Shown in pieces: positions 34,828-61,535 of a stretch of 64,000 nt of DNA. The position numbers and the translations under genes were made by a program. The stretch's first letter is position 1. Each line of letters starts with the position of its first letter. Under the pieces are notes generated by a model. The model was not told the origin of the DNA, ran no database searches, and was given only the letters and a program-made list of their open reading frames with translations. Source of the stretch: an uncultured Lachnospiraceae bacterium (GTDB lineage Bacteria > Bacillota > Clostridia > Lachnospirales > Lachnospiraceae). The stretch covers positions 166,332 through 230,331 of the forward strand of contig CANQBH010000001.1 in assembly GCA_947589155.1 (NCBI GenBank). Direction: 5' to 3'.

Positions 34828-36607
34828 ATGGGAAGAATGATAGTAACAAATAATTGTCAGTGGAAAGATAATCTGGTGAAGGAATGTGAGGACAGCGGTT
34901 TTCGCCTGTCGGGAGATGATAACAATATAGCGGTTTTTCATAAATTGAATATTGATAATGAAAACTATTATCAGGATGGTGAAAACTGTATCGCATGTGC
35001 GGGCACGCTTATCTATAAAGAGGAGATCGGTGAAAAAGCGTTGCGCGCGTTTCTTCATGATGCCATGGAAGTAGAAAAAGAGGGGATACTTTCGTTGAGA
35101 GATCAGGCAATCGGAATGTATGCGGTTGCTATGAGAATCAATGACATAACTTATATTTTTGTTGATAATGAGAGCATTTATCAGTTCTTTTATTATGCGA
35201 AAAACGATCAATATCTGGCAATGCCAACCATATATCATATTGCGCAGCAGACGCAGGCGGAACTTGATGTGGACAATTTATACAAATGGTTGAGTGTGAG
35301 AGCCTATTATGACTGTTTCACCTGCTTTAAGGGTGTCAAAAAAATAGAAAGAGACGAGTTGATTGTAGTGGATGGAAATATTCTTGAAGTAGAACACTAT
35401 CCGATGGAACGCCTCAATTGGCAATCGAAAGATTTTAAGAGTGTGGCGGATGCGTTGGAGAAACAACTTGCAAACATCGGAAGGATAAGAAAGAAAGTAT
35501 TTAACAGATCCATCCTGTATCTCACGGGGGGGGGTAGACTCCCGCCTGGAATATGCCCTGAATGTGTCTGGTGATGAAAACGTAACGATCGGATATTGGT
35601 TAGGAAAGGACAGGATCTCAAACGGCCGTGTAGAAGACGCCAAACTTTCTCAAAGAATGGCGGAGATGTTCGGAAAAGAATTTAAGTTGTTTGACGTATC
35701 GGAGGAACTGGAAGACAGTTTTGATGGGATCGATAAAAAATATTGCGATAAATACGGCGAGTGGGTTAATATTTTTGCAAACAACATTAAATGGAAAGAA
35801 ATGTTTGAAAATCTGGACAAGGACATCGATTTTATCAATTTTGGAGCCATGTCTCAGCCGTTGCGGGAAGAGGTGGGACTTGATGTGCATTATAAGCGGC
35901 CTTATTCGATTGAGCAATTTGTGCAAAATGAATGTTTGCATTTGAATATCGCAGAAAAACTTTTTAGAAGCGATGCTGGGAAAATTGCGGAACTCTTATG
36001 CGATGCAGTCAAGCGCAATTTTGCGACTTCGGAGATGGATCTAAAAGATCTTACATATGAGGACTATGACCATTTGGTTGCTGAATTGTTTTATGCTCCG
36101 GAAGGATGGGCGTATTTGGTGGCAAATATGTTCTGTTATAGTTTTCCGCCGCTGGGCATGAAAACCATACACGATATGGCGGTTTCGATGAAGCCGGAAT
36201 ACAAGAAGGGAAGTAGGCCGCATATAGAACTGATACATCGGTTTTGCGATGACTTATTGGGGGTACCGTTCTTTACGCGCCATGCCTATGCAAAACTGGA
36301 TAGAAAGACGGGCAAGATCCAATTTAGTCTCTTCAGCCGCGCAAGACGAGCATTGATTCCAAAATTATCAGGCACGTGGTTGTTTGAAAAAGTAGCAGTC
36401 GGTATGCTTGCTAATATCATTTGGCCACAGATGAAAGAGGACAAGAGAATCTTTGAGGTGTGTCATAATCGTTTGGTTCATTCTAAGACGGTACAAAAAA
36501 ATCATATTGAAGTAAACGAGCCGAAGTCGATCACCGAAATCGACGTTACGGCATATGCTTCAACAGTGGCATTTATCCTTATGTTGGATTGTATAGGGGA
36601 GAGTTGA
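34828..36607 (+). CDS. Asparagine-synthase-like amidotransferase A (phase-OFF at G9)
   Basis: Read across the G run, this is one gene of 592 residues; as sequenced it is broken. The first frame stops at 35574 after 248 residues (LTGGGRLPPG...), while the downstream frame carries DSRLEYAL and runs on to 36607. With eight instead of nine G the protein reads LTGGVDSRLEY, the PP-loop motif of asparagine synthase. The N-terminal part resembles a class II amidotransferase fold but lacks the catalytic Cys2, as in beta-lactam synthetase and lasso cyclase. Such proteins in O-antigen loci form amides on sugar acids. ATG 34828 has GAGG ten bases upstream. Followed by a close paralogue. Confidence 0.85.
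35526..35534 (+). repeat. Poly-G phase-variation tract, G9 (gene OFF)
   Basis: Nine G within the SGGxDS-type motif of amidotransferase A. In frame at eight (or eleven) G; nine gives a stop 40 bases later. Confidence 0.9.
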
Positions 36608-36645
36608 TCTTAGATTAATAAAAAGGAAAGAGAGTCTTGGTTATT

Positions 36646-38425
36646 ATGGGAAGAATGATAGTAACAAATGATCATCAGTGGAAAGGCAAACTTGTAGAGG
36701 AATTTACAGAAAGCGGTTTCCGCCTATCCGGCGATGATGGCGAGATAACTGTTTTCCATAAACTCAATATCAATAATGAAAATTATTATCAGGAGGGAGA
36801 AGACTGTATTGCATGTGCGGGCACGTTCATTTACAAAGAGGAAATTGGTGAAAAGGCTTTGTCTATATTTCTGCATGATGCAAAAGCAATAGGGAAAAGC
36901 AACATTCTTTCATTGAGAGAGCAGGCTGTCGGCATGTATGCAGTCGCTATGAGAATTGACGGTACGACTTATATCTTTGTTGATAATGAGAGTATTTATC
37001 AATTTTTTTATTTTGTTGACAACAACAGATATCTGGCGACATCAACCATATATCATATTGCGCAGCAGACACAGACAGATCTTGACAAAGAGCAGTTATT
37101 TAAATGGTTGAGCGTAAGATCGTATTACGACAGTTCTACTTGTTTTCAGGGTGTCCGTAAATTAGGAAAAGACGAATTGCTCGTAGCAAATGGAGAAATT
37201 TGTGAGATCCAAGAATATCCGGCTGAGAAAGTTTGTCTTCATCTGGATGATTTTGACAGGACGGCGGATGAATTGGAGAGGCAACTTGCCAATATTGGAA
37301 GAATAAAGAAAAAAGTCTTCCATAAATCTATCTTGTACTTGACTGGGGGGGGTAGATTCCCGTCTGGAATATGCTTTGAATGTATTTGAAGGCGAAAATG
37401 TAACGATTGGGTATTGGCTAGGAAAGGACAGAATCTCGAACGGTCGCGTAGAAGACGCCAAACTCTCACAAAGAATGGCGGAAATGTTTGGAAACAAATT
37501 TAGTTTGTTTGACGTATCAGAAGATCTGACATACAGTTTTGATCGTATCGACAAAAAGCAATGCGATAAATATGGCGAATGGGTGAATACTTTTGCAAAT
37601 AACACAAAGTGGAAAGAGATGTTTGCAAATTTAGATGAAGACATTGACTTTATCAATTTTGGCGCGATGTCGGAACCTTTAAGGGATGATTATGGCTTTG
37701 CAAAAAATTATAAACGACCGTATTCGTTTGAACAATTTGTGCGGGATGAATTCTGTCATTTGAACATAGCGGAAAAACTCTTTAAAGATCAATCAGGAAA
37801 GATCCAAGAGGCAATAGGCAATGCAGCAAAATGTAATTTTGTCACACCGGAGATGGATTTAAGCGATCTCACATATCAGGATTGCGACCGTCTGGTTGCC
37901 GAACAATATTATGTTTTGGAAGACTGGGCGTATTGTATTGCCAATATGTTTTGTTACAGTTTCCCGACGCTTGGCATGAAAGCAACGCATGATGTAGCAG
38001 TGTCTATGGATCCGGATTATAAAAAGGGAAGCAAGTTGCATATAGAATTGATTCATCGGTTTTGCGATGAACTCTTAGAGGTTCCTATTTTTTCCAGACA
38101 TGCCTATGCGGAGTTGGACAGAAGATCCGGAAGGATCACAAGCAGTCTCTTCAGCCGTGTAAGAAGGGCGCTGATTCCAAAATTATCAGGGACATGGTTG
38201 TTTGAAAAAGTGGCGGTCGGTATGCTTGCTAATATTATTTGGCCGCAGATGAAAGAGGATAAGAGTATTTTTGAGATATGCCATAACCGTTTGGTTCATT
38301 CTAAGACTGTGCAAAAGAATAAAATAGAGGTGAATGAGCCAAAGTCGATCACTGAGATTGATGTGACGGCGTATTCCTCAACAGTCGCATTTATATTGAT
38401 GTTGGATTGCATATGGGAGAATTGA
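36646..38425 (+). CDS. Asparagine-synthase-like amidotransferase B (phase-OFF at G8)
   Basis: A tandem paralogue of A, again 592 residues when the frames are joined. The first frame ends at 37389 (247 residues, LTGGGRFPSG...); the second, from DSRLEYALNV, runs to 38425. Seven G would give LTGGVDSRLEY. A and B share long near-identical stretches (for example GYWLGKDRISNGRVEDAK and the last ~100 residues) but differ elsewhere, so substrate choice may differ. Like A it lacks Cys2. Its 3' end overlaps the next membrane-protein gene by 13 bases, so switching it off may also reduce that protein's translation. Confidence 0.85.
37345..37352 (+). repeat. Poly-G phase-variation tract, G8 (gene OFF)
   Basis: Eight G at the same codons as in paralogue A (after ACT rather than ACG, so the in-frame length is seven or ten). 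Confidence 0.9.
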
Positions 38426-40155
38426 TCGCTAAAGTAAGAAAAAACAAAATATGCTGCGCTTTATTGATGACGGTCATACAGTTTGCAGTTGGTCTGCTTT
38501 TTTTTGAGCCAACAGAAAAATCCGATGATTTTGATATGTGTTGTTTTTTGTACGGCGCATTTGATGGCAACTATGATTATCACATGCTTTATCCGCATCC
38601 GCTATTAGGACGTCTATTGGTGTGTTTACTTCGGTGGGTACCGAATCTGCCTTGGTATGCGATCTATATGACATCTATGGTTTTTATATCATGCTTCTGT
38701 TTCCATTATCTTTTTATAAGCGAATATGGAAGCAAACCGGCTTTTGGCGTAGCATATGCAATCGTCAGTTTTTTGATTATTTACGATTTTTTCATACGTT
38801 TTACATTTACAAAGATCGCCGGACTGGTAGCGATCGCTGGGATGCTGTTGCTGTCGTATGCAATATATCATCGGAAATATATGCGGTGGATCCCGTTGGC
38901 GATTCTTTTGCTGATAAATTCACTGTTGATGCGCGATCTGGCAACTGTTGCGGTCATGGGATTGTTCTTGTCTCTTTACGGGATTTATTTTATCGAGAAC
39001 AGAAAGCAAATTTTTTCCAGCAGATTTCTAAAAACAACGGTAAAGATATTCTTGCTTTCCGCTTGTATTTTGGGTGCAAGCCGGCTATCCGCTATTACGA
39101 CGCAAAATGCGTATGATGCTACGGAGGATTGGAGATTCTATATGGATAGCAATCCTGCGCGCGCGGGTGTGTATGATTACGGAGTCCCTTCTTATAAGGA
39201 CTATGCAGAAGAATATGAGGCGCTTGGCGTATCGGAAAATGATTATAAAATGTGGTTTGTAGATTATAATTACAGCGACAGGGACGTTCTTACGATTGAA
39301 CTTCTGCAGGACATAGCAAGTATAAGATCTGAATCTAAGAAAGATTTTTGGGACACTGTATTAGAGGGAACGCGTTACTGTTTTATCAACATTTCTTCAC
39401 AAGTTATTATGGCGGGATTTGTTCTTGCGGCACTTGTGTTTTTTCTTTTTTCTGCAAAAGGAGATCTTTGGAAAGGACAGATCATCCTAGTTGCTATGAT
39501 GGGAGGATATCTTTACTTATATTTGCGAGGCAGAGTACAGTCTCATGTTGACGCCATCATTATTTTAACGGGGATCATACTTCTTATTTTTACATTGCGA
39601 CCCCAAGCCGTTAGTATGAAAGAAAAGATAGGGTTTTCGATTTTGTCTTTGGCGGTCGGGATCTTTGCAATAGGATGGTTTTATGAAGCGTTTGCGCATA
39701 GTTCTTATTATTATAAAGGCAGCAGTGAATTTGTTTTGTCATATCGAGAGCAAATGGAACAAAATTATGACAGGCTGAGCATACTTTCCAAAGATCATGA
39801 CCACTTATATTTGATAGGGGCGCTGGAAACAGGTGTGACCTATCCGGCTTTTACGGTCACATCCGAAGTTGTGGAACGCGATTTTTATGGAAATCTCTTT
39901 CTGATGAATGAGTATAGTATGCCGACATACGGATATACGGTCAAACGTTTTTTTGGTGAAGGCGAATCTTTATATGGAAATATTGTAAACAATGATAAGG
40001 TGTATTATTGCGCAATGGATAAGGAGAGAGATTATTCAGAGACCATAGCAACATATCTGAGTGAGCATTATCAAGAAGATACGCACGCAAAATTAGTGAA
40101 AGAAATAGATGGTATGATGATTTACAGATTTATAAGCAGGGGGAAAGTCAAATGA
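38413..40155 (+). CDS. Large multi-pass membrane protein, putative GT-C glycosyltransferase A
   Basis: 580 residues. About 11 membrane segments with an early acidic loop (KSDDFDM, residues ~36-42) and a C-terminal soluble domain (~residues 450-580). The DxD-like early loop and length fit GT-C enzymes that use polyprenyl-phosphate sugars outside the membrane; I cannot name the family. It is distantly like the protein at 57623 (both have LYG... then a P..WY motif after the first loop). It starts inside amidotransferase B and joins the next gene by ATGA. Confidence 0.6.
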   Translation: MGELIAKVRKNKICCALLMTVIQFAVGLLFFEPTEKSDDFDMCCFLYGAFDGNYDYHMLYPHPLLGRLLVCLLRWVPNLPWYAIYMTSMVFISCFCFHYLFISEYGSKPAFGVAYAIVSFLIIYDFFIRFTFTKIAGLVAIAGMLLLSYAIYHRKYMRWIPLAILLLINSLLMRDLATVAVMGLFLSLYGIYFIENRKQIFSSRFLKTTVKIFLLSACILGASRLSAITTQNAYDATEDWRFYMDSNPARAGVYDYGVPSYKDYAEEYEALGVSENDYKMWFVDYNYSDRDVLTIELLQDIASIRSESKKDFWDTVLEGTRYCFINISSQVIMAGFVLAALVFFLFSAKGDLWKGQIILVAMMGGYLYLYLRGRVQSHVDAIIILTGIILLIFTLRPQAVSMKEKIGFSILSLAVGIFAIGWFYEAFAHSSYYYKGSSEFVLSYREQMEQNYDRLSILSKDHDHLYLIGALETGVTYPAFTVTSEVVERDFYGNLFLMNEYSMPTYGYTVKRFFGEGESLYGNIVNNDKVYYCAMDKERDYSETIATYLSEHYQEDTHAKLVKEIDGMMIYRFISRGKVK

Positions 40156-41114
40156 AAAATCTTTTAATCGTAGGATGCGGAAATATTGGTTTCCGGCATT
40201 TACAGGGAACTCTTGAGTATCTCGGGGGGGGCAATGAACATTTAACCGTTTATTGTGTAGACAAAGATAAGGAGGCACTGGACAGATGTCTTGCTGAGGC
40301 TGCATCAAGGAATATTCTCGTCAGGGTGACTTCAGAAATGTCCTCTTTACCAAAGTCGATAGAACTAGCAATTATAGCGACAGCATCCGCCGTCAGAAGG
40401 GAGGTGTTTGATCAACTCGTATCCGTATGTAATATAAAATATATTATATTTGAAAAAGTGCTTTTTCAAAAAGTAGAAGATTATCATTATGTGAAGAAAA
40501 AACTGCATGAACTTCATATCTGCGCATGGGTTAATTGTCCGAGGCGAGGCATGGAACTGTGGCATACCTTAAAAGGACTTCTGGAAAAAGAAGAAACTTA
40601 TGAGATCTGTATTTCCGGAGGAAATTGGGGATTGTGCTGCAATACGGTACATTATTTAGACGCTATTTGCTATCTGACAGAAAACACAAAAATGCTCCAG
40701 ATCAAAAAAATGAAAATGGATGGACCGCCTGTCGCAGCCAAAAGAGTTGGATATAAGGAGGCTTATGGAACCATCCTAGGATCGTGCGGGAAATGCACTG
40801 GTTTTACGATTTCCTGTCAGGACGATAGCAGCGCACTCCTTTGTAAAGTGATTGGAAAAAGGCAATATGTAATCGATGAAACCAGAGGAGAGTTGACGGT
40901 GTTGGAGAGCGGGCATGAGGTTCAAAAACTGCATTTTCAGGCGCAATATGTCTCACACCTTACCGGTATTTTTGTAAGAGAGATTTTGGAACAGGGAGAT
41001 TGCGAGTTGACGACCTTCGAAGACTCGGTTATTATACACGAAGGCTTTATCGAACGGCTGGGAGAGTATTTTGCGGAGTATGGATATGGCGACGGAAGTT
41101 GCCCTATTACTTGA
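40152..41114 (+). CDS. Gfo/Idh/MocA-type sugar dehydrogenase 1 (phase-ON at G8)
   Basis: 320 residues. The NAD-binding GCGNIGFRH is at residues 8-16, and FEKVLF near residue 100 stands where related enzymes have the EKP motif. Members oxidise or isomerise nucleotide sugars. A G8 run encodes residues ~25-27 (YLGGGNEH); it is in frame here, but seven or nine G would stop translation within a few codons. The usual catalytic EKP is altered (EKV), so activity may differ from the family. ATGA overlap with the preceding membrane-protein gene. Confidence 0.75.
   Translation: MKNLLIVGCGNIGFRHLQGTLEYLGGGNEHLTVYCVDKDKEALDRCLAEAASRNILVRVTSEMSSLPKSIELAIIATASAVRREVFDQLVSVCNIKYIIFEKVLFQKVEDYHYVKKKLHELHICAWVNCPRRGMELWHTLKGLLEKEETYEICISGGNWGLCCNTVHYLDAICYLTENTKMLQIKKMKMDGPPVAAKRVGYKEAYGTILGSCGKCTGFTISCQDDSSALLCKVIGKRQYVIDETRGELTVLESGHEVQKLHFQAQYVSHLTGIFVREILEQGDCELTTFEDSVIIHEGFIERLGEYFAEYGYGDGSCPIT
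40224..40231 (+). repeat. Poly-G phase-variation tract, G8 (gene ON)
   Basis: Eight G near the 5' end of dehydrogenase 1. With seven G the frame reads GGAMNI then stop; with nine it reads GGGQ then stop. Confidence 0.85.
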
Positions 41115-41136
41115 TAGAAAATGGAGGAAGATGATA

Positions 41137-42105: not shown

Positions 42106-42130
42106 GGATATAGCGGATCATATTAGTGCG

Positions 42131-43564: not shown

Positions 43565-43591
43565 AACCATTCATGTAATAGGAGGCATATC

Positions 43592-44797
43592 ATGTTTGAT
43601 TTGGATCATTTCATAGGTGAATATGTTACGAAGCGGTCTGAAAGTATGTTTTTATCAGACATCACAAATAACAGGGAGCAGCTCATAGATAAAATACGGA
43701 AAAAAAGTATTTTGGTTATAGGGGGCGCCGGCAGTATAGGAAGTTCGTTTATCAAAGCGGTGCTTCCGTTTGAACCTAAAAGTCTGGTCGTTGTCGATCT
43801 TAATGAAAATGCGTTGGCGGAACTGACGAGGGATCTGAGAAGTACGGCAGGGATGTATGTACCGGATGATTATGTGACCTATCCAATGGACTATGCTTCG
43901 CCTGTATTTGAAAAGATGTTCTGCGGCAGGGAAGGGTTTGATATCGTCGCGAATTTCTCTGCGCATAAGCATGTGCGGAGCGAGAAAGACGTTTATTCTA
44001 TCGAAGCGTTGCTGCGCAATAATGTATTAAATGCGAAATCGCTTTTAGACTTACTGACAAAATATCCGCCTGAGGAATATTTTTGTGTATCTACGGATAA
44101 AGCGGCTAACCCTGTAAATATCATGGGGGCGAGCAAGCGCATAATGGAAGATCTGATTTTTAGTTATTCCGACCGTTTTCCGGTCAAGACTGCGCGATTT
44201 GCAAATGTGGCGTTTTCCAACGGTTCTCTGCCTGCGGGCTTCTTGGAACGGATGAATAAAAAGCAGCCGATCAGCGCACCGTCGGATGTGCGGCGGTATT
44301 TTGTTTCTCCGGAAGAGAGCGGACAGATTTGTATGCTTTCCTGCATGTTGGGACAAAATCGGGAGATCTTTTTTCCAAAATTATGCGAGGATCAGATGAC
44401 GACATTCGATGCGATCGCCATGGATCTAATTCAGGAATCCGGATATGACGTCGTTTTCTGTAATTCTGACAGCGAAGCGATAGAAAAGGCGGAGGACATT
44501 GTTCAAAGCGGGAAATATCCGGTTCATTTTGAGGTTTCCGATACATCGGGCGAGAAATCGTTTGAAGAATTTTATACGGAAGGGGAAACGGTTGATCTTG
44601 ACCGATTCTGCGCTTTAGGAGTCATTACGGACAAGCAGCGCTGCGACTTGGACAAGATAGATGAATTGCTGGATCGTCTTATGGCGTTGTTTAGTCAGGA
44701 TCATATCGAAAAAGCGGATATCGTATATGCCATGGAAAGATATCTGCCGAATTTCTCTCATATTGAAACCGGAAGATCTCTGGATGGCAAGATGTAG
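43592..44797 (+). CDS. legB: NDP-N-acetylglucosamine 4,6-dehydratase (LegB-like)
   Basis: 401 residues. An SDR enzyme of the polysaccharide-synthesis type: GGAGSIGSSF (about residue 46), FSAHKHV, VSTDKAANPVNIMGASKRIME (catalytic region) and FANVAFSNGS. In Campylobacter LegB acts on GDP-GlcNAc as the first committed step to legionaminic acid. The catalytic tyrosine of the usual YxxxK is replaced in this alignment by MGASK, as in CapD/LegB-type proteins. A good AGGAGG site precedes the ATG. It heads the legB-legC-ptmE-acetyltransferase-neuB-neuC block. Confidence 0.83.
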   Translation: MFDLDHFIGEYVTKRSESMFLSDITNNREQLIDKIRKKSILVIGGAGSIGSSFIKAVLPFEPKSLVVVDLNENALAELTRDLRSTAGMYVPDDYVTYPMDYASPVFEKMFCGREGFDIVANFSAHKHVRSEKDVYSIEALLRNNVLNAKSLLDLLTKYPPEEYFCVSTDKAANPVNIMGASKRIMEDLIFSYSDRFPVKTARFANVAFSNGSLPAGFLERMNKKQPISAPSDVRRYFVSPEESGQICMLSCMLGQNREIFFPKLCEDQMTTFDAIAMDLIQESGYDVVFCNSDSEAIEKAEDIVQSGKYPVHFEVSDTSGEKSFEEFYTEGETVDLDRFCALGVITDKQRCDLDKIDELLDRLMALFSQDHIEKADIVYAMERYLPNFSHIETGRSLDGKM

Positions 44798-44826
44798 GGT
44801 TTTTTTCAAGAAAGAAGGGCATGAGG

Positions 44827-46002
44827 ATGATACCTTTATCGATTCCTAATTTTGAAGGTAATGAAAAAAAATATGTAGAAGATGCCGTGGAGCAGGGTTG
44901 GGTCTCTACGGGCGGCGCTTATATCACGCAACTGGAAAACATGATGGCGGGATATTTAAGGGCGGAGAGCGTCGCGGCTTGTCAGAGCGGAACGGCTGCG
45001 CTGCATCTGTCTTTAGTGGATGCCGGCGTTGGTGCAGAAGATATGGTGATCGTACCGACGCTTACTTTTATTGCAGCGGTCAATCCCGTCAAATATCAGC
45101 AGGCCGAACCGATTTTTATGGATTGTGATGAAACGCTATGTATAGATCCTAAAAAACTCAGAAAGTTTTGTGAAGAAGAATGTGACGATATTGATGGCAG
45201 GCTGATCTATAAAGGAAACGGCAAACAGATAAAAGCGGTTGTTGTGGTTCATGTTTTCGGAAATCTTGCAGATATGGAACAGATCATGGAGATTGCAGAA
45301 GACCATCACCTGATCGTTATTGAAGATGCCACGGAGGCTTTGGGAACGCATTATATCGGCGGGCGTTTTGAAGGAAAATATGCCGGAACCATAGGGCACT
45401 ATGGCGCATTTTCATTTAATGGGAACAAGATCATTACGACCGGCGGCGGTGGAGCGGCGATTGCGCGGACCGGAGAAATGACGGAACATATCAAATATCT
45501 TTCCACACAGGCAAAGGATGATCCGCATCTTTATATTCATAATGAAGTGGGATATAACTACCGAATGACGAATTTGCAGGCGGCGCTTGGTGTTGCACAA
45601 CTGGAAGAATTGCCGGAGTTTATACGGAGAAAGCAAAGGAATTACGCACTGTATCAGGAATTGTTCAGTGATATGCCGTTAGTAAAGATCTTGCCGTTTC
45701 GGGAAGGGACAGATTCCAATCAGTGGTTTTATGCACTGGATCTGTCTATGGAAAAGATCTGTGGAAGTCTGTATGATGTTATGAATGAGATGGAAAAGCG
45801 CGGTGTACAGACGCGGGCAATATGGGGACTGGTACATGAACAAAAACCATATAAAAACGCGATCGCGTATCAGATCGAGAAGGCGGTTTATTATAGCGGC
45901 AGGATCTTAAATATACCGTGCAGTACGCAGATCACAGAACAGGAGATACGGGAGGTCGCATCCGTACTTACAGATGTTTTGGGAGAAATGTCATATGAAT
46001 AA
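44827..46002 (+). CDS. legC: Aminotransferase, LegC-like (DegT/DnrJ/EryC1)
   Basis: 391 residues. It starts MIPLSIPNFEGNE and has EQGWVSTGGAY, SGTAALHLSL, the DATEALG aspartate and the PLP-lysine segment SFNGNKIITTGGGG, all as in LegC. It adds the 4-amino group to the 4-keto-6-deoxy intermediate. ATG 44821 is an alternative start two codons earlier. It overlaps the next gene by eight bases. Confidence 0.88.
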   Translation: MIPLSIPNFEGNEKKYVEDAVEQGWVSTGGAYITQLENMMAGYLRAESVAACQSGTAALHLSLVDAGVGAEDMVIVPTLTFIAAVNPVKYQQAEPIFMDCDETLCIDPKKLRKFCEEECDDIDGRLIYKGNGKQIKAVVVVHVFGNLADMEQIMEIAEDHHLIVIEDATEALGTHYIGGRFEGKYAGTIGHYGAFSFNGNKIITTGGGGAAIARTGEMTEHIKYLSTQAKDDPHLYIHNEVGYNYRMTNLQAALGVAQLEELPEFIRRKQRNYALYQELFSDMPLVKILPFREGTDSNQWFYALDLSMEKICGSLYDVMNEMEKRGVQTRAIWGLVHEQKPYKNAIAYQIEKAVYYSGRILNIPCSTQITEQEIREVASVLTDVLGEMSYE

Positions 46003-47047
46003 AACATATCTGGAGCGCTATCTGGCAAACGAAAATACGAAACTGATAGATGCCATGAATATGATCGATCAGAATGCTGACGGCGTGCTTTTCGTATTAA
46101 ATGAAGAAGGAAAATTGTACGGTGCTGTTTCAGACGGAGATATCAGGCGATGGATCTTAGGAAACGGCGTACTGGATACAGAGATCAAAAAGATCATGAA
46201 TATGTCGCCGAAGTATTTATTCGAGGAAGACAGACGGCTTGCCAGAGAGACGATGGAACGCTATAACGTACGCGCAATTCCTATTGTAGATCATTCGCTG
46301 CGTGTTGTTGATATGGAGACCCTGAAGAAGCGAAAGGTCGAAGAGACCGCATCGGTCAATGCGTCCGTTATCATTATGGCAGGGGGACAAGGGACAAGAC
46401 TGTATCCGCTCACCAAGATCCTGCCGAAGCCTTTGATACCAATAGGAGATATTCCTATTATGGAAAGGATCATCCATAATTTCTGCACATACGGGATGAA
46501 GGATTACTATATCACAGTGAATTACAAGAAAAATATGATCAAATCATATTTTTCTGAACAGGATACAGAGTATCAGTTGACTTACGTGGAAGAAGATCGC
46601 CCGTTGGGAACGGCGGGCAGCATACGGCTGATCGAAAAAAAGTTTAGCGACCCAATTTTTGTTACAAATTGTGATATACTGATTCAGGCGGATTATGCGG
46701 ATATCTATGAATATCACAAGAAGAACCATAATGCCATTACAATCGTCACATCTCTAAAGAATACGACCATTCCCTATGGCGTTATTCATGCGCAAGAGGA
46801 TGGTCAAGTCGTTGGAATGGAAGAAAAGCCATGCACTGCCTATTTTGTCAATACAGGAATGTATGTGATAGATCCTGCATTGATCGATCTCATCCCCGCT
46901 GATGAGTGTTTTCATATGACAGATCTGGTAGAAAAAGTACTCGGATCCGGACAGCGGGTCGGAATGTATCCGGTAAGTGAAGAAGCTTTTCTGGACATGG
47001 GAGAATTTGAGGAAATGAAGCGCATGGAGGAAAGGATAAAACAATGA
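45995..47047 (+). CDS. ptmE: CBS-domain sugar nucleotidyltransferase (PtmE-like)
   Basis: 350 residues. Two CBS domains (residues ~1-120; GVLFVLNEEGKLYGAVSDGDIRR, VRAIPIVD) are fused to a nucleotidyltransferase ([22 protein letters not shown] from ~130). This fusion matches PtmE, which makes GDP-glucosamine from glucosamine-1-phosphate and GTP in Campylobacter legionaminic synthesis. GlmM, encoded in the window, could supply the substrate. ATG 45995 overlaps the legC end; it joins the acetyltransferase gene by ATGA. Confidence 0.85.
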   Translation: MNKTYLERYLANENTKLIDAMNMIDQNADGVLFVLNEEGKLYGAVSDGDIRRWILGNGVLDTEIKKIMNMSPKYLFEEDRRLARETMERYNVRAIPIVDHSLRVVDMETLKKRKVEETASVNASVIIMAGGQGTRLYPLTKILPKPLIPIGDIPIMERIIHNFCTYGMKDYYITVNYKKNMIKSYFSEQDTEYQLTYVEEDRPLGTAGSIRLIEKKFSDPIFVTNCDILIQADYADIYEYHKKNHNAITIVTSLKNTTIPYGVIHAQEDGQVVGMEEKPCTAYFVNTGMYVIDPALIDLIPADECFHMTDLVEKVLGSGQRVGMYPVSEEAFLDMGEFEEMKRMEERIKQ

Positions 47048-47682
47048 GCGAGCGGATCATTCTTTTAGGCGCAGGCGGGCATGCGAGGTCTATGGTAGAT
47101 ACGATCGAGGCGTTGGGAAGATATGAGATTGCGGGATTTGTCATGCCGGAACAGGGGATGGAAATGTCCTTTAGGTCTTATCATACGATAGGAACGGATC
47201 ATGATCTGAGGGAAATATATTCCGCCGGTATCAGGAAAGCCTGCATAGGAATCGGTTATTTAGGGCGCAAAGATGTGCGCCGACGGGTATATGAAAGCCT
47301 AAAAGAGATCGGTTTTGAAATGCCAAATATCATAGATAATACGGCTGTCATTGCTTCTGACGTAAAATTGGACGAAGGGTGTTTTATTGGGAAAAAAGCG
47401 GTCGTTAATACAAATGCGCAGATAGGGAAATGTGTTATTGTCAATACCGGCGCGATTATAGAGCATGACTGCTGCGTAGGGGATTTTTCCCATATTTCCG
47501 TAGGATCGACACTGTGCGGAGAAGTTTGTGTGGGGGAGCATGCGATGATCGGTGCAAATGCAACGGTCATCCAAGGAAGATCCATAGGCAACAACAGTAT
47601 TGTCGGCGCCAATAGTACGGTGCTGATAGATGTGGAGGATGACATGAAAGTGTATGGAATTGTAAAAGAACAACACTGGTGA
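47044..47682 (+). CDS. Sugar O/N-acetyltransferase (NeuD/LegH-like)
   Basis: 212 residues. A PglD-type N-terminal domain (IILLGAGGHARSMVD) and a left-handed beta-helix of hexapeptide repeats (residues ~90-200) with the catalytic His in EHDCCVGDFSHIS. It would acetylate the 4-amino group of the legionaminic precursor from acetyl-CoA. The neighbours on both sides are legionaminic genes. Confidence 0.85.
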   Translation: MSERIILLGAGGHARSMVDTIEALGRYEIAGFVMPEQGMEMSFRSYHTIGTDHDLREIYSAGIRKACIGIGYLGRKDVRRRVYESLKEIGFEMPNIIDNTAVIASDVKLDEGCFIGKKAVVNTNAQIGKCVIVNTGAIIEHDCCVGDFSHISVGSTLCGEVCVGEHAMIGANATVIQGRSIGNNSIVGANSTVLIDVEDDMKVYGIVKEQHW

Positions 47683-47718
47683 AAAAGAATTTGGAATCAC
47701 CCTAGGAGACAGAATGAT

Positions 47719-48714: not shown

Positions 48715-49868
48715 AAAAAGTGGTGATCTTAACGGCAACGCGGGCAGAATACGGATTATTAAAACCGCTTATGACAGGTATGTTGACGGATCCGTTTTTT
48801 GATACGCGGATCGTGGCGACCGGTATGCATCTGTCACCGGAATTTGGTATGACCATAAAGGAGATCGAAGCAGACGGAATAAAAATAGACAAAAAAATCG
48901 AGATTCTTCTGAGTTCGGATACGCCGGTGGCCGTATCAAAAGCCATGGGACTGGCTATGATAAGTTTTTCAGAGTATTTTGAAGAATGTCGACCGGACGC
49001 TTTGTTAGTGTTGGGCGACAGATATGAAACGCTTGCTGTATGCTGTGCTGCGATGAATGCGCGAATCCCGATCTTTCATCTGCATGGAGGAGAGACGTCG
49101 GAGGGGCTGATCGACGAAGCGATACGGCACAGCATTACAAAAATGAGTTATCTGCATTTTACAAGCACCGAGCCGTATCGGCGCAGGGTTATCCAATTGG
49201 GGGAAGCGCCGGAGCGTGTTTTTAATGTCGGCGCTATGGGAGTAGAGAATGCGCTGCATGTGGATCTGATGACGGCGGAGGAGTTAAGTGAAGATATAGG
49301 TTTTCCTTTAGGAACGGCCTATGCGGTCGGGACATTCCATCCGCTCACATTGGAAAATGCCACGGCGCAGGAGCAGATGATGGCATTATTGAATGCGATC
49401 GATCGTTATCCGTCTATGCGCTTCCTCTTTACAAAGGCAAATGCCGATGCAAACGGCAGAATTATCAATCAAATGTTGAGCGACTATGCAAAGACGCATG
49501 TCAATTTTTGCCTAGTAGATTCGCTGGGGATGAGGCGGTATTTAAGTGCGCTCAGGTATGCAGAGTTTGTGATTGGAAATTCTTCGAGCGGTCTGATCGA
49601 GGTTCCGACGTTTCATATACCGACGATCAATATAGGCGATAGGCAGCGAGGAAGGATCGCAGGAAAGACCGTGATTTCATGCGAACCGGCAGAAGACGCC
49701 ATTGGCGAGGCCATAGAAAAGGCGCTGGATCCGCGCTTCAGGGAAGATATCCGCACGGCGCAGAATCCATATGGCGACGGTCACACTTCAGAAAAAATAC
49801 TGAACGTGATCAAAGATGTTTTCTTAAATGATAAGATCGATTTGAAAAAGCAATTTTACGATCTTTGA
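48711..49868 (+). CDS. neuC: Hydrolysing NDP-sugar 2-epimerase (NeuC/LegG)
   Basis: 385 residues. It has TATRAEYGLL (UDP-binding), LVLGDRYE, FHLHGGETSEG and GNSSSGLIEVP. It hydrolyses the GDP-2,4-diamino sugar and inverts C2 to give the 6-carbon substrate of NeuB. Pathway order here would be PtmE, LegB, LegC, acetyltransferase, NeuC, NeuB, CMP-synthetase. Confidence 0.92.
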   Translation: MKKVVILTATRAEYGLLKPLMTGMLTDPFFDTRIVATGMHLSPEFGMTIKEIEADGIKIDKKIEILLSSDTPVAVSKAMGLAMISFSEYFEECRPDALLVLGDRYETLAVCCAAMNARIPIFHLHGGETSEGLIDEAIRHSITKMSYLHFTSTEPYRRRVIQLGEAPERVFNVGAMGVENALHVDLMTAEELSEDIGFPLGTAYAVGTFHPLTLENATAQEQMMALLNAIDRYPSMRFLFTKANADANGRIINQMLSDYAKTHVNFCLVDSLGMRRYLSALRYAEFVIGNSSSGLIEVPTFHIPTINIGDRQRGRIAGKTVISCEPAEDAIGEAIEKALDPRFREDIRTAQNPYGDGHTSEKILNVIKDVFLNDKIDLKKQFYDL

Positions 49869-49916: not shown

Positions 49917-51344
49917 ATGCAATTTACAGATACGTTTTTTCTTTTCTTTTTTTTACCGGGATTGCTGGTCCTTTATCATTTAAGTAAGAACTCTCTTCAA
50001 CCGTATATTCTTTTGGTAGCCAGTTTGATCTTTTATGCCTGCGGAGCGAAGGAGTACTTCTTTCTATTCGTTGCCGCGACGGCATTCAATGTATTGATAG
50101 GATATGCCATAGGAAGATGTTCAAAGAAATATGGTAAGAGTCGTATCATTTTGCTTGCCTTTGGTATTGCGATAAATGTTGGAGTTTTGTTTTACTACAA
50201 ATATGCGGATTTCGTTCTGGGCAGTTTTTGGAGATGGAAGGGGGCGGAGTATCTGTCGCGTGGAATAGCACTGCCTCTTGGAATATCTTTTTTTGTATTC
50301 AAGGCGATCTCATATTTGATAGATGTTTATACCGAGCAGATTGAAAATCCGAGTTCACCAATATATGCAGCGTTATATCTTACGCTGTTTACGCAGATAT
50401 CTTCCGGACCGTTAGCGAGAGCGGCAACCGTATTGCCAACGCCGCACGGGGGGGGCAAAATTGCTTGGAACAAATTCTGTGATGGCATGAGCCGATTCGT
50501 GACAGGCGTTTGTAAAAAAGTGCTACTGTCTAACCCGCTTTATGGGATCGTAGAGGAGGTATATAGTTCAAACGCAGGAGATCTTACCACAGCGCAGGCA
50601 TGGATGGGATCGATTTGTTTTTCGCTCCAGTTATTTTATGATTTTGCGGGTTATTCGGACATGGCGATAGGCCTTACGATGATGTTTGGCTATGACTGTC
50701 CGGAAAATTTTCTTTATCCTTATACAACGCGTTCCATATCAGAATTTTGGCGAAAATGGCATGTGACGCTTGGTGCATGGTTTCGGGATTATATTTATAT
50801 ACCTTTGGGAGGATCACGCGTTGATAAGAACTGGAAATTGTATCGGAATCTATTTATTGTATGGCTATTGACAGGATTGTGGCATGGTGCGAATTGGACG
50901 TTCGTTATCTGGGGATTAGCCTATTTTGTATTGATAGCGGTAGAAAAAGCAACGGGTTTACCCAAACGCTTTTCCTCGCCGGTCGCCGCCTTTTTATATA
51001 GGATCATTACATTATTTATCATTAATATTTTATGGGTAGTATTTCGTGCAGATAATATTCAGACAGCATTGATCTTTATTGGAAGAATGTTTAGTTACCA
51101 TGCTGACAGTATGATCAATGCAAGAGTACAGTTTTTGATAAAGGATAATTTTGTTTTTCTGATCTTCGCTTTACTTTTTACAGTTCCGATCATTCCTTGG
51201 ATTCGATCGAAATGTCAAAAGTATCGTGCGACCAATGTGATATATCAATGTTTCTTTGTAGTGGCCAGTATTTTTTTGTTCTTTTGGGCAGTTTCATATG
51301 TGGTTGCAGGTGCAAATGATCCTTTTGTTTATGCGAACTTCTAG
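49917..51344 (+). CDS. MBOAT O-acyltransferase (AlgI-like; phase-ON at G8)
   Basis: 475 residues with about 11 membrane segments. SGPLARAATV, FWRKWHVTLGAWFRDYIYIPLGG and the catalytic LTGLWHGANWTFV are the AlgI/DltB-type motifs. It moves acyl groups across the membrane for O-acetylation of a surface glycan. A G8 run encodes PHGGGKIA (about residues 177-180). It is in frame here; seven or nine G would end translation within 20 codons. AGGAGG precedes the ATG. Its partner follows at 51357. Confidence 0.9.
   Translation: MQFTDTFFLFFFLPGLLVLYHLSKNSLQPYILLVASLIFYACGAKEYFFLFVAATAFNVLIGYAIGRCSKKYGKSRIILLAFGIAINVGVLFYYKYADFVLGSFWRWKGAEYLSRGIALPLGISFFVFKAISYLIDVYTEQIENPSSPIYAALYLTLFTQISSGPLARAATVLPTPHGGGKIAWNKFCDGMSRFVTGVCKKVLLSNPLYGIVEEVYSSNAGDLTTAQAWMGSICFSLQLFYDFAGYSDMAIGLTMMFGYDCPENFLYPYTTRSISEFWRKWHVTLGAWFRDYIYIPLGGSRVDKNWKLYRNLFIVWLLTGLWHGANWTFVIWGLAYFVLIAVEKATGLPKRFSSPVAAFLYRIITLFIINILWVVFRADNIQTALIFIGRMFSYHADSMINARVQFLIKDNFVFLIFALLFTVPIIPWIRSKCQKYRATNVIYQCFFVVASIFLFFWAVSYVVAGANDPFVYANF
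50448..50455 (+). repeat. Poly-G phase-variation tract, G8 (gene ON)
   Basis: Eight G in the MBOAT gene just after the SGPLAR motif and well before the catalytic histidines, so either frameshift removes the active site. Confidence 0.85.
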
Positions 51345-51356
51345 GAGGAAAACTGT

Positions 51357-52505
51357 ATGAAGGATAAAAAGTTATTGGCGGTTATTATATCTGGGATCAT
51401 GTTGGTAGTAGGAGCGTTGTCTTTTCAGCCACAAGGAGGATGGCAAACGGGAGCAGATGTGGTTGCAGCGTACCAAACGAATCTTTATCCGCAGCATGCG
51501 TGGATTGATCTGAATGGTTTTATGGCAAGAAAATTGCATATCAAAGGCCTCTATCAGGACATGGGGATGTATGTTCTGGGGGATGATTATATTATAACAA
51601 GAGGCGAGGGGCAGACATCTGCAGATTATGAATACGATGAGATTTGTTCCTTAAAGGACTTTTTGGATGAGAGGGACATTGGCCTGTTGTATGTGAATGC
51701 TCCGGTGAAATTTTTAGATGATAATATCTTTATACAGAATTTTGGTGTCCCGTCCTATTCAAATTCAAATGCTGACCTTTTTCTGCAACGTATTGATGAA
51801 GCCGGCATAGACTTCTTGGATTTGAGAGAAGAATTGTTATCGGATGGAAAGAATATCTTCGATATGTTTTATAGAACGGATCATCACTGGACGGTAGAAA
51901 GCGGATTTTGGGCGACAGAAAAAATAACTGAGCGCTTGAATTGGGATTTTGGCTATCAGATCAATAAAGGGATATATGATAAGGACAAGTATTTGGTTAC
52001 GGAATATCCGAAGTGCTGGCTGGGGGAACAAGGACGTAAGGTGGGAGAGGCTTATGTTGGATTGGATGATTATGTTAGAATAGAACCGAATTATGAGACA
52101 AGTTTTGACCTGATTACTCCTTCCGGAACACAAAGCGGCACGTTTAGCGAACTTTTTATCAATGAAGGAGCCTATACGTTTACGCAGGATGTGTACAGTG
52201 CACTGTCGATGCATTATTCTTATTTGTCAGGAGGCATCAGTCAGACAAAGATCATCAACCATGATCAGAGCGAAGGCAAGATCCTGTTGCTTGGAGATTC
52301 TTATTCCCAATGTGTGGTTCCATTTCTTGCACAGGGAGTCCATGAAGTAGATTCTCTGATCTTGCGTTCATATGATGGCAGCCTGAGAGATTACATCGAG
52401 GCAGGGGATTATGATACAGTTGTTATATTGTATGCGGAATTTATGATCGGAGCTCATGATAGCGGCGAGAGTGATGCAAATTATAAGATGTTTTCTTTTG
52501 AATGA
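51357..52505 (+). CDS. AlgX/AlgJ-like SGNH acyltransferase partner (DHHW family)
   Basis: 382 residues. One N-terminal membrane anchor (residues ~5-22), then an extracellular domain with FYRTDHHWT (about residue 178) and LLGDSYSQ (about 312), the DHHW and GDSxS motifs of alginate-type acetyltransferases. It would take the acyl group from the MBOAT protein and place it on the glycan. It is not itself phase-variable by sequence, but depends on the MBOAT gene being ON. Confidence 0.85.
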   Translation: MKDKKLLAVIISGIMLVVGALSFQPQGGWQTGADVVAAYQTNLYPQHAWIDLNGFMARKLHIKGLYQDMGMYVLGDDYIITRGEGQTSADYEYDEICSLKDFLDERDIGLLYVNAPVKFLDDNIFIQNFGVPSYSNSNADLFLQRIDEAGIDFLDLREELLSDGKNIFDMFYRTDHHWTVESGFWATEKITERLNWDFGYQINKGIYDKDKYLVTEYPKCWLGEQGRKVGEAYVGLDDYVRIEPNYETSFDLITPSGTQSGTFSELFINEGAYTFTQDVYSALSMHYSYLSGGISQTKIINHDQSEGKILLLGDSYSQCVVPFLAQGVHEVDSLILRSYDGSLRDYIEAGDYDTVVILYAEFMIGAHDSGESDANYKMFSFE

Positions 52506-54121: not shown

Positions 54122-54165
54122 ACGATATACATCAGAGCAACAGTCAATAGTTGGAGGCGGTTGAT

Positions 54166-54849
54166 ATGAAAAACATAGCGATCATACCGGCGAGGAGCGG
54201 ATCAAAAGGAATAAAAGACAAGAATATACAAAAGTTCTGTGGGAAACCGTTGATGGCATCTGCGATCGAAACGGCGATGGAATCAGGATGTTTTGATGAG
54301 ATCATGGTTTCTACCGATTCTGAGATCTATGCGGATATTGCAAAGAAATATGGAGCAAACGTTCCGTTTTTGCGTAGTGAAGCGGCATCTTCAGATGAGG
54401 CATCTTCTTGGAGCGCAGTCGAAGAAGTTTTGGAGATGTATGAGAGGGAAGGACGGAATTTTGACACCTTCTGCCTGCTTCAGCCGACATCCCCGCTGCG
54501 GACTGCGGAAGATGTCAGGGAGGCATATCAACTTTTCAGGGAGAAGGCTTCTTTTGCTGTGGTCTCTGTGTGTGTGGCGGAACATTCGCCGCTTTGGTGC
54601 GGGCATTTGCCGGATGATCATGAGTTCTCAGATTTTGTCAGCGCAAAGCAAGTAAATCGGAGACAAGATGGAGGGACTTTTTATAGAATCAACGGTGCGA
54701 TCTATATTGCTAAAACAGACAGATTTAAGGAGGACAAGTTTTTTTATCAAAAGGGAAGTTATGCATATATCATGCCACAGGACAGGAGCATAGATATCGA
54801 TACATGGATGGATTTTAGATTTGCTGAATTATTGAGTGCGGGGGGGTAA
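54166..54849 (+). CDS. neuA: CMP-nonulosonate cytidylyltransferase (NeuA/LegF-like; length set by G7)
   Basis: 227 residues as sequenced. It has IIPARSGSKGIKDKNIQ (residues 5-21), STDSEIYADIAK, LLQPTSPLR (about 105) and the C-terminal DIDTWMDF. It activates the nonulosonic acid with CTP. ATG 54166 has GGAGG eight bases before it. A G7 run is followed at once by TAA. With eight G the frame would continue 33 residues (VIYRTVVSV...VCAA) to a TGA that overlaps the next ATG as ATGA, so the native end may lie at 54947. Confidence 0.87.
   Translation: MKNIAIIPARSGSKGIKDKNIQKFCGKPLMASAIETAMESGCFDEIMVSTDSEIYADIAKKYGANVPFLRSEAASSDEASSWSAVEEVLEMYEREGRNFDTFCLLQPTSPLRTAEDVREAYQLFREKASFAVVSVCVAEHSPLWCGHLPDDHEFSDFVSAKQVNRRQDGGTFYRINGAIYIAKTDRFKEDKFFYQKGSYAYIMPQDRSIDIDTWMDFRFAELLSAGG
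54840..54846 (+). repeat. Poly-G tract, G7, at the 3' end of neuA
   Basis: Seven G then TAA. One more G gives the 33-residue extension; one fewer adds two residues (Asn-Ile) and stops. Confidence 0.75.
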
Positions 54850-54943
54850 TATATAGAACCGTCGTAAGCGTTATTCCTGCAGGGAAGGAGGTTCTGCTTG
54901 TATCAGTCGCAGACACAACTCTGGGAAAAGAGGTGTGCGCGGC

Positions 54944-55912: not shown

Positions 55913-55913
55913 T

Positions 55914-56840: not shown

Positions 56841-56844
56841 AAAT

Positions 56845-57600: not shown

Positions 57601-57622
57601 ATATTCGTATTGAGGTGAGGGT

Positions 57623-60822: not shown

Positions 60823-60852
60823 GGGGATTTTATCGTACAAAGGAGAATAAAC

Positions 60853-61535
60853 ATGATTTGTGAGTATAATGATCAACAACTCTTTGAACTGGTAAATCAT
60901 CAGATTCGCAATTTTTGGAATAATACGGGGGGGTAAATGACAACGGAGTTCATTCTTTGAAAATCGCAATAAAGCGATTGGAGGAAAATTTTAGACATAA
61001 GGCCGGTAAAGTCTATGAAGAAAACGGAGAAGTAAAATTCAGCGTCACGCATTCCGTCCAGTACGCCATTTTTTTATATTTATATTCTAATCAACTGTAT
61101 TTGGACGATGATGAAGCAAACGCTGCAAAAGTATATTATCTGAATAAGGTCATGAACTGTGTGGAATGGTTTTATGCAGTGAAATTTCCAACAGTTTTTT
61201 CTGCAGAGCATCCCATGGGTTCCGTTGTAGGAAAGGCGCAGCTTGCTGACCATCTGTTTTTATATCAGGGGACGACTATCGGCGGGAATAGAAATGACAA
61301 TGTACTCTATTATCCGACCATAGGTTCCCATGTTGTTATGTGTGCCGACAGCAAAGTGTTGGGAAACAGTCATGTGGGAAACAATGTAATTTTGTCAGCA
61401 AATTCCTATGTGATCAATGAGGACATACCGGATAATTGTATCGTATTTGGACAAAGCCCTAACTTGACGATCAAATCAATGAACCAAGAGACTATGAGGA
61501 GAAGGATAAATGAAATGTGTATGTGGAGAGAATGA
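60853..61535 (+). CDS. Serine O-acetyltransferase-like protein (phase-OFF at G7)
   Basis: Joined across the tract this is a 227-residue protein; as sequenced it stops after 27 residues (MICEYNDQQL...NTGG). Adding one G continues as GGVNDNGVHSLKIAIKRLEENF into the downstream frame. The C-terminal part is a left-handed beta-helix acetyltransferase with AEHPMGSVVG, YQGTTIGGN and SHVGNNVILSANSYVI, as in CysE-like enzymes found in nonulosonate loci. ATG 60853 has AGGAG upstream. The downstream half could start weakly at TTG 60957. It may acylate a sugar of the island rather than serine. Confidence 0.82.
60927..60933 (+). repeat. Poly-G phase-variation tract, G7 (gene OFF)
   Basis: Seven G followed by TAA. 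Eight G opens the full 227-codon frame. Confidence 0.88.

What the first reader, a model, noticed from the sequence alone, without database searches (positions are those of the whole stretch)
35526..60933. Campylobacter-like poly-G phase-variation array in a Firmicute glycan island
Six runs of 7-9 G (35526 G9, 37345 G8, 40224 G8, 50448 G8, 54840 G7, 60927 G7), all on the coding strand and all inside or ending surface-glycan genes. By reading, no G or C run of seven or more occurs elsewhere in the 64 kb, although the first 25 kb is more GC-rich. Assuming independent bases and 22% G, about 0.1 runs of eight or more would be expected here; four are seen. Three genes are out of frame by one base at the run, two are in frame, and one sets a stop. 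Slipped-strand mispairing at such tracts is the known switch in Campylobacter and Helicobacter surface loci; I know of no standard description for a Lachnospiraceae glycan island. Six binary switches allow up to 64 states.
Basis: partly seen in the sequence, partly recalled or inferred. Interest (0 to 1): 0.95.

Follow-up and report, generated by a model that had tools for sequence, protein, structure and literature searches.

The report
Poly-G switches in bacterial sugar-coat genes
A bacterium that probably belongs to the gut family Lachnospiraceae has runs of seven to nine G's in genes predicted to make and decorate its surface sugars, and three of those genes are out of frame exactly at the run, so its cells likely switch their coat on and off at random by copying slips, as Campylobacter does.

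Summary
The six G runs are real, all on the coding strand, and in excess (four runs of 8 or more; 0 of 5000 synonymous-codon shuffles reach four). Tracts 35526 and 37345 each split a tandem copy of a ~592-aa asparagine-synthetase-like enzyme at its ATP-binding TGGVDS motif. Natural homologues are intact there, and dN/dS between the copies is 0.21 before and 0.09 after the break. Tract 60927 stops an acetyltransferase; one relative is intact there, another apparently also frameshifted.

The finding is part of something larger. The draft genome has 50 runs of 7 or more G; 27 lie in five stretches making up 7% of it, mostly with sugar- or surface-modifying enzymes. There, three more genes have one protein domain split in two frames at the run. 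Some runs sit in likely promoter spacers. Five other genera have similar genes, some split the same way.

Best reading: a Campylobacter-style poly-G repertoire in a Firmicute that keeps MutS. Switching itself is not shown: there are no reads or sister strains. The mechanism is known; nine paper searches, some with capped lists, showed no report for this lineage.

The parts
34819..35574 (+). N-terminal part of asparagine-synthetase-like enzyme, copy 1, ending out of frame just after the G run
   Evidence: aligns with the N-terminal part of P0003-P0007 (587-592 aa) up to the TGG of TGGVDS
35526..35534 (+). G9 tract on the TGGVDS motif of copy 1; out of frame
35564..36607 (+). C-terminal part of copy 1, open in another frame
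   Evidence: 356 codons open from the tract
36637..37389 (+). N-terminal part of asparagine-synthetase-like enzyme, copy 2
37345..37352 (+). G8 tract on the TGGVDS motif of copy 2; out of frame
37376..38425 (+). C-terminal part of copy 2
   Evidence: dN/dS between the copies' downstream parts 0.088
40152..41114 (+). Oxidoreductase-like gene (N-terminal motif resembles Gfo/Idh/MocA by eye; no Pfam match)
40224..40231 (+). G8 tract, in frame
43592..49868 (+). Nonulosonic-acid (legionaminic-type) block: dehydratase-like gene, LegC aminotransferase, nucleotidyltransferase-like gene, NeuD, NeuB, NeuC
   Evidence: LegC, NeuD, NeuB, NeuC above NCBIfam cut-offs
49917..51344 (+). MBOAT membrane O-acyltransferase
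   Evidence: PF03062 E 1.1e-20
50448..50455 (+). G8 tract, in frame, in the MBOAT gene
51357..52505 (+). AlgX-like SGNH protein, likely partner of the acyltransferase
   Evidence: PF16822 E 3.2e-11
54151..54849 (+). CMP-sugar cytidylyltransferase (PseF-like, below cut-off)
54840..54846 (+). G7 tract that sets the stop at the natural end of the cytidylyltransferase
60927..60933 (+). G7 tract running straight into a stop; gene out of frame
60957..61535 (+). Downstream part of serine-acetyltransferase-like gene; close homologues carry about 34 more N-terminal residues, whose counterpart lies upstream of the tract in another frame

Best explanation
The G runs are likely hypermutable switches that gain or lose single G's by slipped-strand mispairing, so that predicted surface-glycan genes would flip at random between in-frame (on) and out-of-frame (off). 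Shown: the runs, their excess in the island, their coding-strand placement, and their concentration in five stretches of the draft genome. Also shown: single enzymes split in two frames exactly at the run, intact natural homologues, and low dN/dS in the part beyond the break. Inferred: that tract length changes often in living cells, and that the change alters a surface glycan. In this island the switches would act on a duplicated asparagine-synthetase-like enzyme (cut in its ATP-binding motif), a membrane O-acyltransferase, an oxidoreductase-like protein, an acetyltransferase and possibly the tail of a CMP-sugar synthetase, around a legionaminic-type nonulosonic-acid pathway. A few runs elsewhere lie between likely -35 and -10 boxes and would switch transcription by changing the spacing. 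MutS is present, so loss of mismatch repair is probably not what sets this genome apart.
For: Excess and placement: (4 runs of 8 or more; 0 of 5000 synonymous shuffles and 2 of 500 dinucleotide shuffles reach it). Genome: 13 runs of 8 or more and 37 of exactly 7 in 1.98 Mb; 27 of 50 (10 of 13 of the longer ones) lie in five stretches making up 7.2% of the genome, all on one strand within each stretch.

Frame: of the 26 coding runs in those stretches, 7 break a gene clearly, 1 probably, 17 are in frame (one of them only 3 codons before its stop), 1 sets a natural stop (my count). A single Pfam domain continues in a second frame across the run in three genes outside the window: Acyl_transf_3 positions 2-144 then 159-325 (C18:639) and 3-213 then 234-322 (C6:33197), AMP-binding 11-98 then 121-382 (C37:556). 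In the window, copies 1 and 2 are split at TGGVDS, which P0003-P0011 carry intact. dN/dS between the copies is 0.214 before and 0.088 after the break.

Second state in nature: P0014 (70% identical) continues from LVNHQ through GGV at the place of tract 60927, while the N-terminus of P0013 (70%) matches the same segment only when read in another frame (14 of 15 residues compatible; 0 of 2000 shuffled N-termini reach it).

Control: of 30 G7 runs read out of 52 in four same-genus genomes, 28 are in frame by the same rule and the other two lie between short open frames, probably non-coding; those genomes have 0-2 runs of 8 or more.

Other genera: split Acyl_transf_3 in G235, G266 and G347, split TupA ATP-grasp in G266. 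Promoter spacers.
Against: No reads, sister strains or clonal populations were available, so variation in tract length is unseen. The genome is an 84%-complete draft, probably assembled from metagenome reads, and its run lengths are consensus values. G7 is short for a switch: in C. jejuni tracts are mainly G9 and G10 (PMC8355987, passages), and most G7 runs here are in frame (13 of 17 island coding runs). Same-genus genomes have few such runs. MutS is present in 5 of 5, whereas C. jejuni lacks functional mismatch repair. Of five other loci with homologues of the 60927 gene, my script located the site in one (L124), which has no G run there. P0015, 71% identical and of full length, reads GGG where P0014 reads GGV, and does not clearly show either state. 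Over the whole window the 7-mer excess is not significant. The large dS (1.0 and 1.5) means that dN/dS averages over a long history and cannot date the breaks.
Confidence: 0.85

Rival explanations
1. The broken genes are ordinary pseudogenes: frameshifts fixed by drift at slippery G runs, with no reversible switching.
For: Three of six genes in the island are broken; no second length has been seen in this species; same-genus genomes have few long runs.
Against: The two split copies are each broken once, at the run, with no other stop: 235 and 236 plus 356 and 356 codons open. The part beyond the break has dN/dS 0.088. Long G runs in coding frames are in excess over synonymous choice, and in-frame genes carry the same runs. 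Split glycan-type genes recur in other genera.
Confidence: 0.07
2. The run lengths are assembly or sequencing errors and the genes are really in frame.
For: Homopolymers are the classic error site of some sequencing methods (recalled); the genome is a draft with 55 contigs.
Against: In four related drafts, 28 of the 30 G7 runs that I read (of 52) are in frame and the other two are probably non-coding, so drafts of this kind do not routinely misread G7. The excess of the runs themselves does not depend on their exact length. The relative P0013 appears broken at the same place, by back-translation. Frame states at A and T runs were not tested.
Confidence: 0.06
3. The runs are programmed slippage sites for RNA polymerase or the ribosome: a fixed tract gives a fixed mixture of full-length and short protein.
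For: Long G runs could in principle make polymerase slip; the runs could do both (recalled, not tested).
Against: Programmed sites are usually fixed in length and frame (recalled); here in-frame and out-of-frame runs of 7 and 8, and out-of-frame runs of 9, are mixed over many unrelated genes, and some runs are in likely promoter spacers.
Confidence: 0.05
4. The runs are by-products of Gly-Gly coding and G-rich codon use in these genes, without function.
For: Every coding run in the window encodes Gly-Gly; 5 of 41 Gly-Gly pairs in the island ORFs use GGG GGG, and GGG is an ordinary codon there (118 of 695 Gly codons).
Against: 0 of 5000 synonymous shuffles that keep protein and pooled codon use give four runs of 8 or more, though 6 of 5000 give five runs of 7 or more. 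No run of 7 or more occurs in the GC-richer first 29 kb of the window.
Confidence: 0.04

Closest known systems
Poly-G phase-variable glycan loci (phasome) of Campylobacter jejuni, including flagellar legionaminic-acid, capsule and LOS genes
   Same: G/C tracts in glycan genes, many per genome, with a minority intergenic; flagellar legionaminic acid is one of the variable glycans; most phase-variable genes lie in the flagellar-glycosylation and capsule regions (PMC8355987, passages seen).
   Different: Host is probably a Firmicute and has MutS; tracts are G7-G9 rather than mainly G9-G10; two tracts lie on a catalytic motif of a duplicated enzyme; switching not measured.
Homopolymeric tracts as a general switch in prokaryotes (Orsi et al. 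2010, PMC2831843; abstract, section list and one passage seen)
   Same: Frameshift in a tract within a coding gene inactivates it; [quoted passage not shown]
   Different: Its abstract reports poly(A) and poly(T) tracts near the 5' end of genes; here the tracts are poly-G, at varied positions in the gene, in glycan islands.
Promoter-spacer homopolymer switches (for example in Neisseria; recalled, not looked up)
   Same: Three tandem surface-protein genes carry G7 directly before TATAAT with a TTG-started -35-like box at spacings of 15, 15 and 17 bases.
   Different: No expression data; the three promoters look like copies of one another.
Asparagine synthetase / beta-lactam synthetase / TsnB9 fold
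   Same: Predicted fold of the natural homologue P0003 matches TsnB9 (7ylz, E 4.3e-15), carbapenam synthetase and asparagine synthetases; TGGVDS motif invariant in 9 of 9.
   Different: About 10% identity; no Pfam match at E 0.001 and only weak ones up to E 1; no cysteine at position 2, so probably not glutamine-using; substrate unknown.

Membership tests
Simple-sequence contingency locus (slipped-strand phase variation) | Homopolymer tract longer than chance within or before the gene | tested here: met
   (island); whole-window 7-mer count not significant
Simple-sequence contingency locus (slipped-strand phase variation) | One-unit change moves the gene between full-length and truncated product | tested here: met
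   at 35526, 37345, 60927 the current frame ends within 0-12 codons of the run while another frame is open for 199-356; at 40224 and 50448 the other two frames end within 3 and 10 codons. Not met at 54840 in the usual sense
Simple-sequence contingency locus (slipped-strand phase variation) | Off alleles otherwise intact | tested here: met
Simple-sequence contingency locus (slipped-strand phase variation) | Tract length varies within a population or between strains | not testable with these tools
   No reads or sister strains; indirect support only, from relatives P0013 and P0014
Campylobacter-type poly-G phasome | Many poly-G tracts per genome, concentrated in surface-glycan islands | tested here: met
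   27 of 50 runs in five stretches making up 7.2% of the genome; gene content mostly, not wholly, glycan-type (C37 has AMP-binding enzymes)
Campylobacter-type poly-G phasome | Absence of functional mismatch repair (C. jejuni) | tested here: not met
   MutS_I above cut-off in 5 of 5 genus genomes, G000 included; MutL not tested; other phase-variable genera keep mismatch repair (recalled)
Legionaminic-acid pathway | LegC aminotransferase, NeuB/LegI synthase, NeuC/LegG epimerase, NeuD-type acetyltransferase together | tested here: met
   all four above NCBIfam cut-offs within 44821-49868
Legionaminic-acid pathway | Dedicated cytidylyltransferase and dehydratase | tested here: inconclusive
   54151 is closest to PseF but below its cut-off (193.9 vs 205.7); 43592 is below all NCBIfam cut-offs though it matches PF02719
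Asparagine-synthetase-like PP-loop enzymes | SGGxDS-type ATP-binding motif and fold | tested here: met
   (on the natural homologue P0003, pLDDT 82)
Asparagine-synthetase-like PP-loop enzymes | N-terminal cysteine nucleophile of glutamine-using members | tested here: not met
   M1 G2 K3 invariant in five homologues; the requirement itself is recalled

The most novel reading that the evidence does not exclude
Members of the family (Lachnospiraceae by inference), a major commensal family, carry Campylobacter-scale poly-G switchboards, in this genus while keeping MutS. The targets are the same short list in different genera: O-acyltransferases, TupA-type ATP-grasp enzymes, hexapeptide acetyltransferases, glycosyltransferases and asparagine-synthetase-like enzymes. 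The switches would randomise how surface sugars are decorated, cell by cell, perhaps against phages or antibodies. In this genome one switch sits on the ATP-binding motif of a duplicated enzyme, so that motif and switch share the same bases.
Probability: 0.5. Interest if true: 0.8.

Novelty: new member of a known kind. Interest (0 to 1): 0.62.

Why it matters
Phase variation in gut anaerobes is mostly discussed as DNA inversion; poly-G slippage is associated with Campylobacter, Helicobacter and Neisseria (recalled). If commensal Firmicutes use poly-G switches on surface glycans too, then strain-level coat diversity, phage escape and antibody recognition in the gut could be read directly from tract lengths in existing metagenome reads. 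Standard gene calling would also list many such genes as fragments: the two pieces of the split enzyme appear as separate 347- and 349-aa proteins in the protein collection.

Tried and rejected
Two scans of genome contigs for the split enzyme found no named relative. The first structure prediction, with five sequences, was poor (pLDDT 47) and was not used; nine sequences gave pLDDT 82. A first family count with a variable-gap pattern over-counted reverse-strand runs and was replaced.

A general -35/-10 scan around the runs found 4 of 46, two of them inside coding runs and probably chance, against 1 of 126 G5-G6 and 7 of 837 G4 runs. It scores TTGCTT low and so missed the three surface-protein promoters, and it did not pick C18:29198. 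The narrower test (TATAAT directly after the run), made after seeing those three, found 3 of 46 against 1 of 5603 shorter runs (G3-G6); the three look like copies of one promoter.

Mismatch-repair loss as the cause was rejected for MutS; MutL was not tested. Longer runs are out of frame more often (5 of 9 against 3 of 16, Fisher p 0.087): suggestive only. One query piece (L112:1-200) was ill chosen and is ignored. Four of the 50 genome runs (C23, C26, C49, C50) were not fetched and have no frame call. In other genera, Pfam was run on 20 of 28 pieces from 6 of 11 stretches; G016, G080 and G149 genes were not scanned.
Full report
WHAT WAS CHECKED. The six G runs exist as described and are the only G or C runs of seven or more in the window. 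In the 32-kb glycan island (29245-61535) G runs of length 4, 5 and 6 number 43, 12 and 1, then lengths 7, 8 and 9 number 2, 3 and 1, a shape that a single geometric decay does not give (expected 0.36 runs of 7 or more, 0.07 of 8 or more). Keeping every protein and the pooled codon use of the listed ORFs, 5000 synonymous shuffles never gave four runs of 8 or more (mean 0.32); 6 of 5000 gave five runs of 7 or more. Against this, overlapping 7-mers over the whole window and both strands are not in significant excess (17 of 100 shuffles reach the count).

WHAT THE GENES ARE. The island holds a nonulosonic-acid block of legionaminic type: LegC (448 bits, cut-off 420), NeuD (200, cut-off 161), NeuB (495, cut-off 400) and NeuC (466, cut-off 236). 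Around it lie glycosyltransferase-type genes, a polysaccharide flippase-type gene, ATP-grasp enzymes, a formyltransferase, a PIG-L deacetylase, an MBOAT O-acyltransferase with an AlgX-like neighbour, and two cytidylyltransferases. The genome has four flagellin matches, three of them at C1:31.7-39.5 kb, about 12 kb before the first run of another run-rich stretch (C1:46-66 kb). Whether the sugar decorates flagella or another surface polymer is open.

THE SPLIT ENZYME. Runs 35526 and 37345 each cut a tandem copy of one protein. The pieces align with two parts of natural 587-592-aa proteins P0003-P0007, all reading TGGVDS exactly at the run. Four more distant relatives also read it. The family has no Pfam match at E 0.001 and only weak ones up to E 1; the predicted fold of P0003 (pLDDT 82) matches TsnB9 hydroxyamidotransferase, carbapenam and beta-lactam synthetases and asparagine synthetases at about 10% identity. 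The motif is their ATP-binding loop (recalled), so a slip at the run would remove the catalytic half. The two copies differ by dN/dS 0.214 upstream and 0.088 downstream of the break. The part that is now unread has been conserved, which a long-dead gene would not show; but dS is large, so the breaks themselves may be recent.

THE ACETYLTRANSFERASE. At 60927 the run leads straight into a stop. Homologues are mostly 215-240 aa (108 of the 119 that I counted; 262 proteins matched in all, 120 listed). The N-termini of close ones match the window's reading upstream of the run, with P0014 continuing intact through GGV. P0013, equally close at 70% identity, starts with residues that match the same segment only when read in another frame: 14 of 15 positions compatible, 0 of 2000 shuffled N-termini. 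P0015 has full length but reads GGG at that place and is not decisive. So at least one relative appears broken and one intact there. The one further homologue whose DNA I could read at the site, L124, has no G run there.

THE OTHER RUNS IN THE WINDOW. 40224 and 50448 are in frame; their other two frames end within 3 and 10 codons. 54840 ends a cytidylyltransferase whose present form already covers model positions 1-219 of 222, so its effect, if any, would be on the tail.

THE GENOME. The window lies in a draft of 1.98 Mb, 55 contigs, 84% complete. It has 13 runs of 8 or more and 37 of exactly 7. I examined 46 of these 50. Five stretches making up 7.2% of the genome hold 27 of 50 runs and 10 of 13 of the longer ones, all on one strand within each stretch. 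The stretches were chosen after seeing the runs; a scan-type control that allows for this gives 28 runs in the best five 35-kb windows against at most 23 in 2000 uniform placements. Their genes include Acyl_transf_3, hexapeptide and GNAT acetyltransferases, TupA and sugar-transfer ATP-grasp enzymes, FkbM methyltransferase, radical SAM, DUF6311 and AMP-binding enzymes, with a Wzz gene next to one run. Three of these genes outside the window have one Pfam domain continuing in another frame across the run. Of 26 coding runs there, 7 clearly break their gene, 1 probably does (C1:58274, where no family match was found beyond the run), 17 are in frame (one only 3 codons before its stop) and 1 is at a natural stop (my count).

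PROMOTERS. On contig C8 three tandem paralogous proteins, by eye with a signal peptide and a hydrophobic C-terminal anchor, stand near a sortase gene and each have G7 directly before TATAAT, with a TTG-started box at spacings of 15, 15 and 17 bases. Only 1 of 5603 shorter G runs (G3-G6) in the same stretches has TATAAT directly after it. They look like copies of one promoter, so this is one event multiplied. Similar settings before Wzz (C18:29198) and at C2:49590 are weaker; the general scan picked the second and not the first.

RELATIVES. Four same-genus drafts have 0-2 runs of 8 or more and 11-17 of exactly 7. Of 30 G7 runs read in them, out of 52, 28 are in frame, many in genes that look like housekeeping genes by eye; the two others lie between short open frames, probably non-coding. 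The repertoire is therefore not seen across the genus, though all five genomes are drafts. Across the family, 351 of 397 genomes have at least one run of 8 or more; by my reading of the table, with its rounded sizes, 13 are denser than this one. I looked at clusters of runs in eight other genomes, chosen because their runs were close together on one strand. Pfam was run on pieces from five of them (G120, G235, G266, G347, G367), and all five have runs in glycan-type genes. Of the 17 runs in those stretches, 11 are out of frame by the same rule. Single domains are split at the run: Acyl_transf_3 in G235, G266 and G347, TupA ATP-grasp in G266. A GT2 glycosyltransferase in G367 and acyltransferases in G120 and G235 are cut short. 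One in-frame G347 run is in an Asn_synthase-family gene (E 9.1e-5). G149 has its runs in genes that look like housekeeping genes by eye, 8 of 11 in frame, so a high count alone proves nothing.

TAXONOMY. No name is given for the genome. The family spans at least 334 genera in the collection, which fits Lachnospiraceae (recalled), and two named homologues are Roseburia hominis and Parasporobacterium. This is inference.

LITERATURE. Nine searches of the open library listed no paper whose title or abstract start describes poly-G phase variation in Lachnospiraceae. Some lists were capped (20 of 44, 20 of 2,829), and subscription papers are mostly not held. The one paper holding all four terms concerns phase variation in Campylobacter (PMC6437147, passages). 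From PMC8355987 (passages): C. jejuni strains have 18-39 potential phase-variable genes, tracts mainly G9 and G10, indel rates of 1e-4 to 1.6e-3 per division, and no functional mismatch repair.

VERDICT. It is a known kind of mechanism in a lineage where I found no description.

Noticed in passing
G149 (1.6 Mb, 68% complete), C1:10001-50000 = L110, L111: An outlier with 214 G runs of 8 or more; in the 40 kb read, 8 of 11 are in frame, in genes that look like housekeeping genes by eye. G298 has 121. Cause unknown: codon habit, lack of slippage, or assembly.
   Followed up: partly
L112 (G120:C1:345001-365000), runs at 15698, 6342, 5108 on the minus strand: Three lipoproteins with near-identical signal peptides carry G8, G9 and G8 directly after the lipobox cysteine; the two G8 copies are in frame and the G9 copy is not.
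   Followed up: partly
L053 (C8:46001-62000), 5323-9331 minus strand: Three tandem paralogous proteins with a signal peptide and hydrophobic C-terminal anchor by eye, whose promoters each hold G7 in the spacer; a sortase gene lies at 10399-11181.
   Followed up: partly
G000 C8:2823 (G9) and C7:41187 (G7): G runs just before a methyl-accepting chemotaxis gene and at the start of a PAS/GGDEF/EAL gene, so signalling genes may be switched too.
   Followed up: no
window 1-27500: The GC-richer first part holds RecD2, 2-isopropylmalate synthase, a phosphoglucomutase-type enzyme and a second glycan block (dTDP-glucose dehydratase, UDP-galactopyranose mutase, a flippase-like protein below cut-off) with no G run above 6. 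GC falls from about 0.55 to 0.39 into the island.
   Followed up: no
G002:C38: A same-genus genome has its NeuB gene at 28304 and an in-frame G8 at 16949 on the same contig.
   Followed up: no
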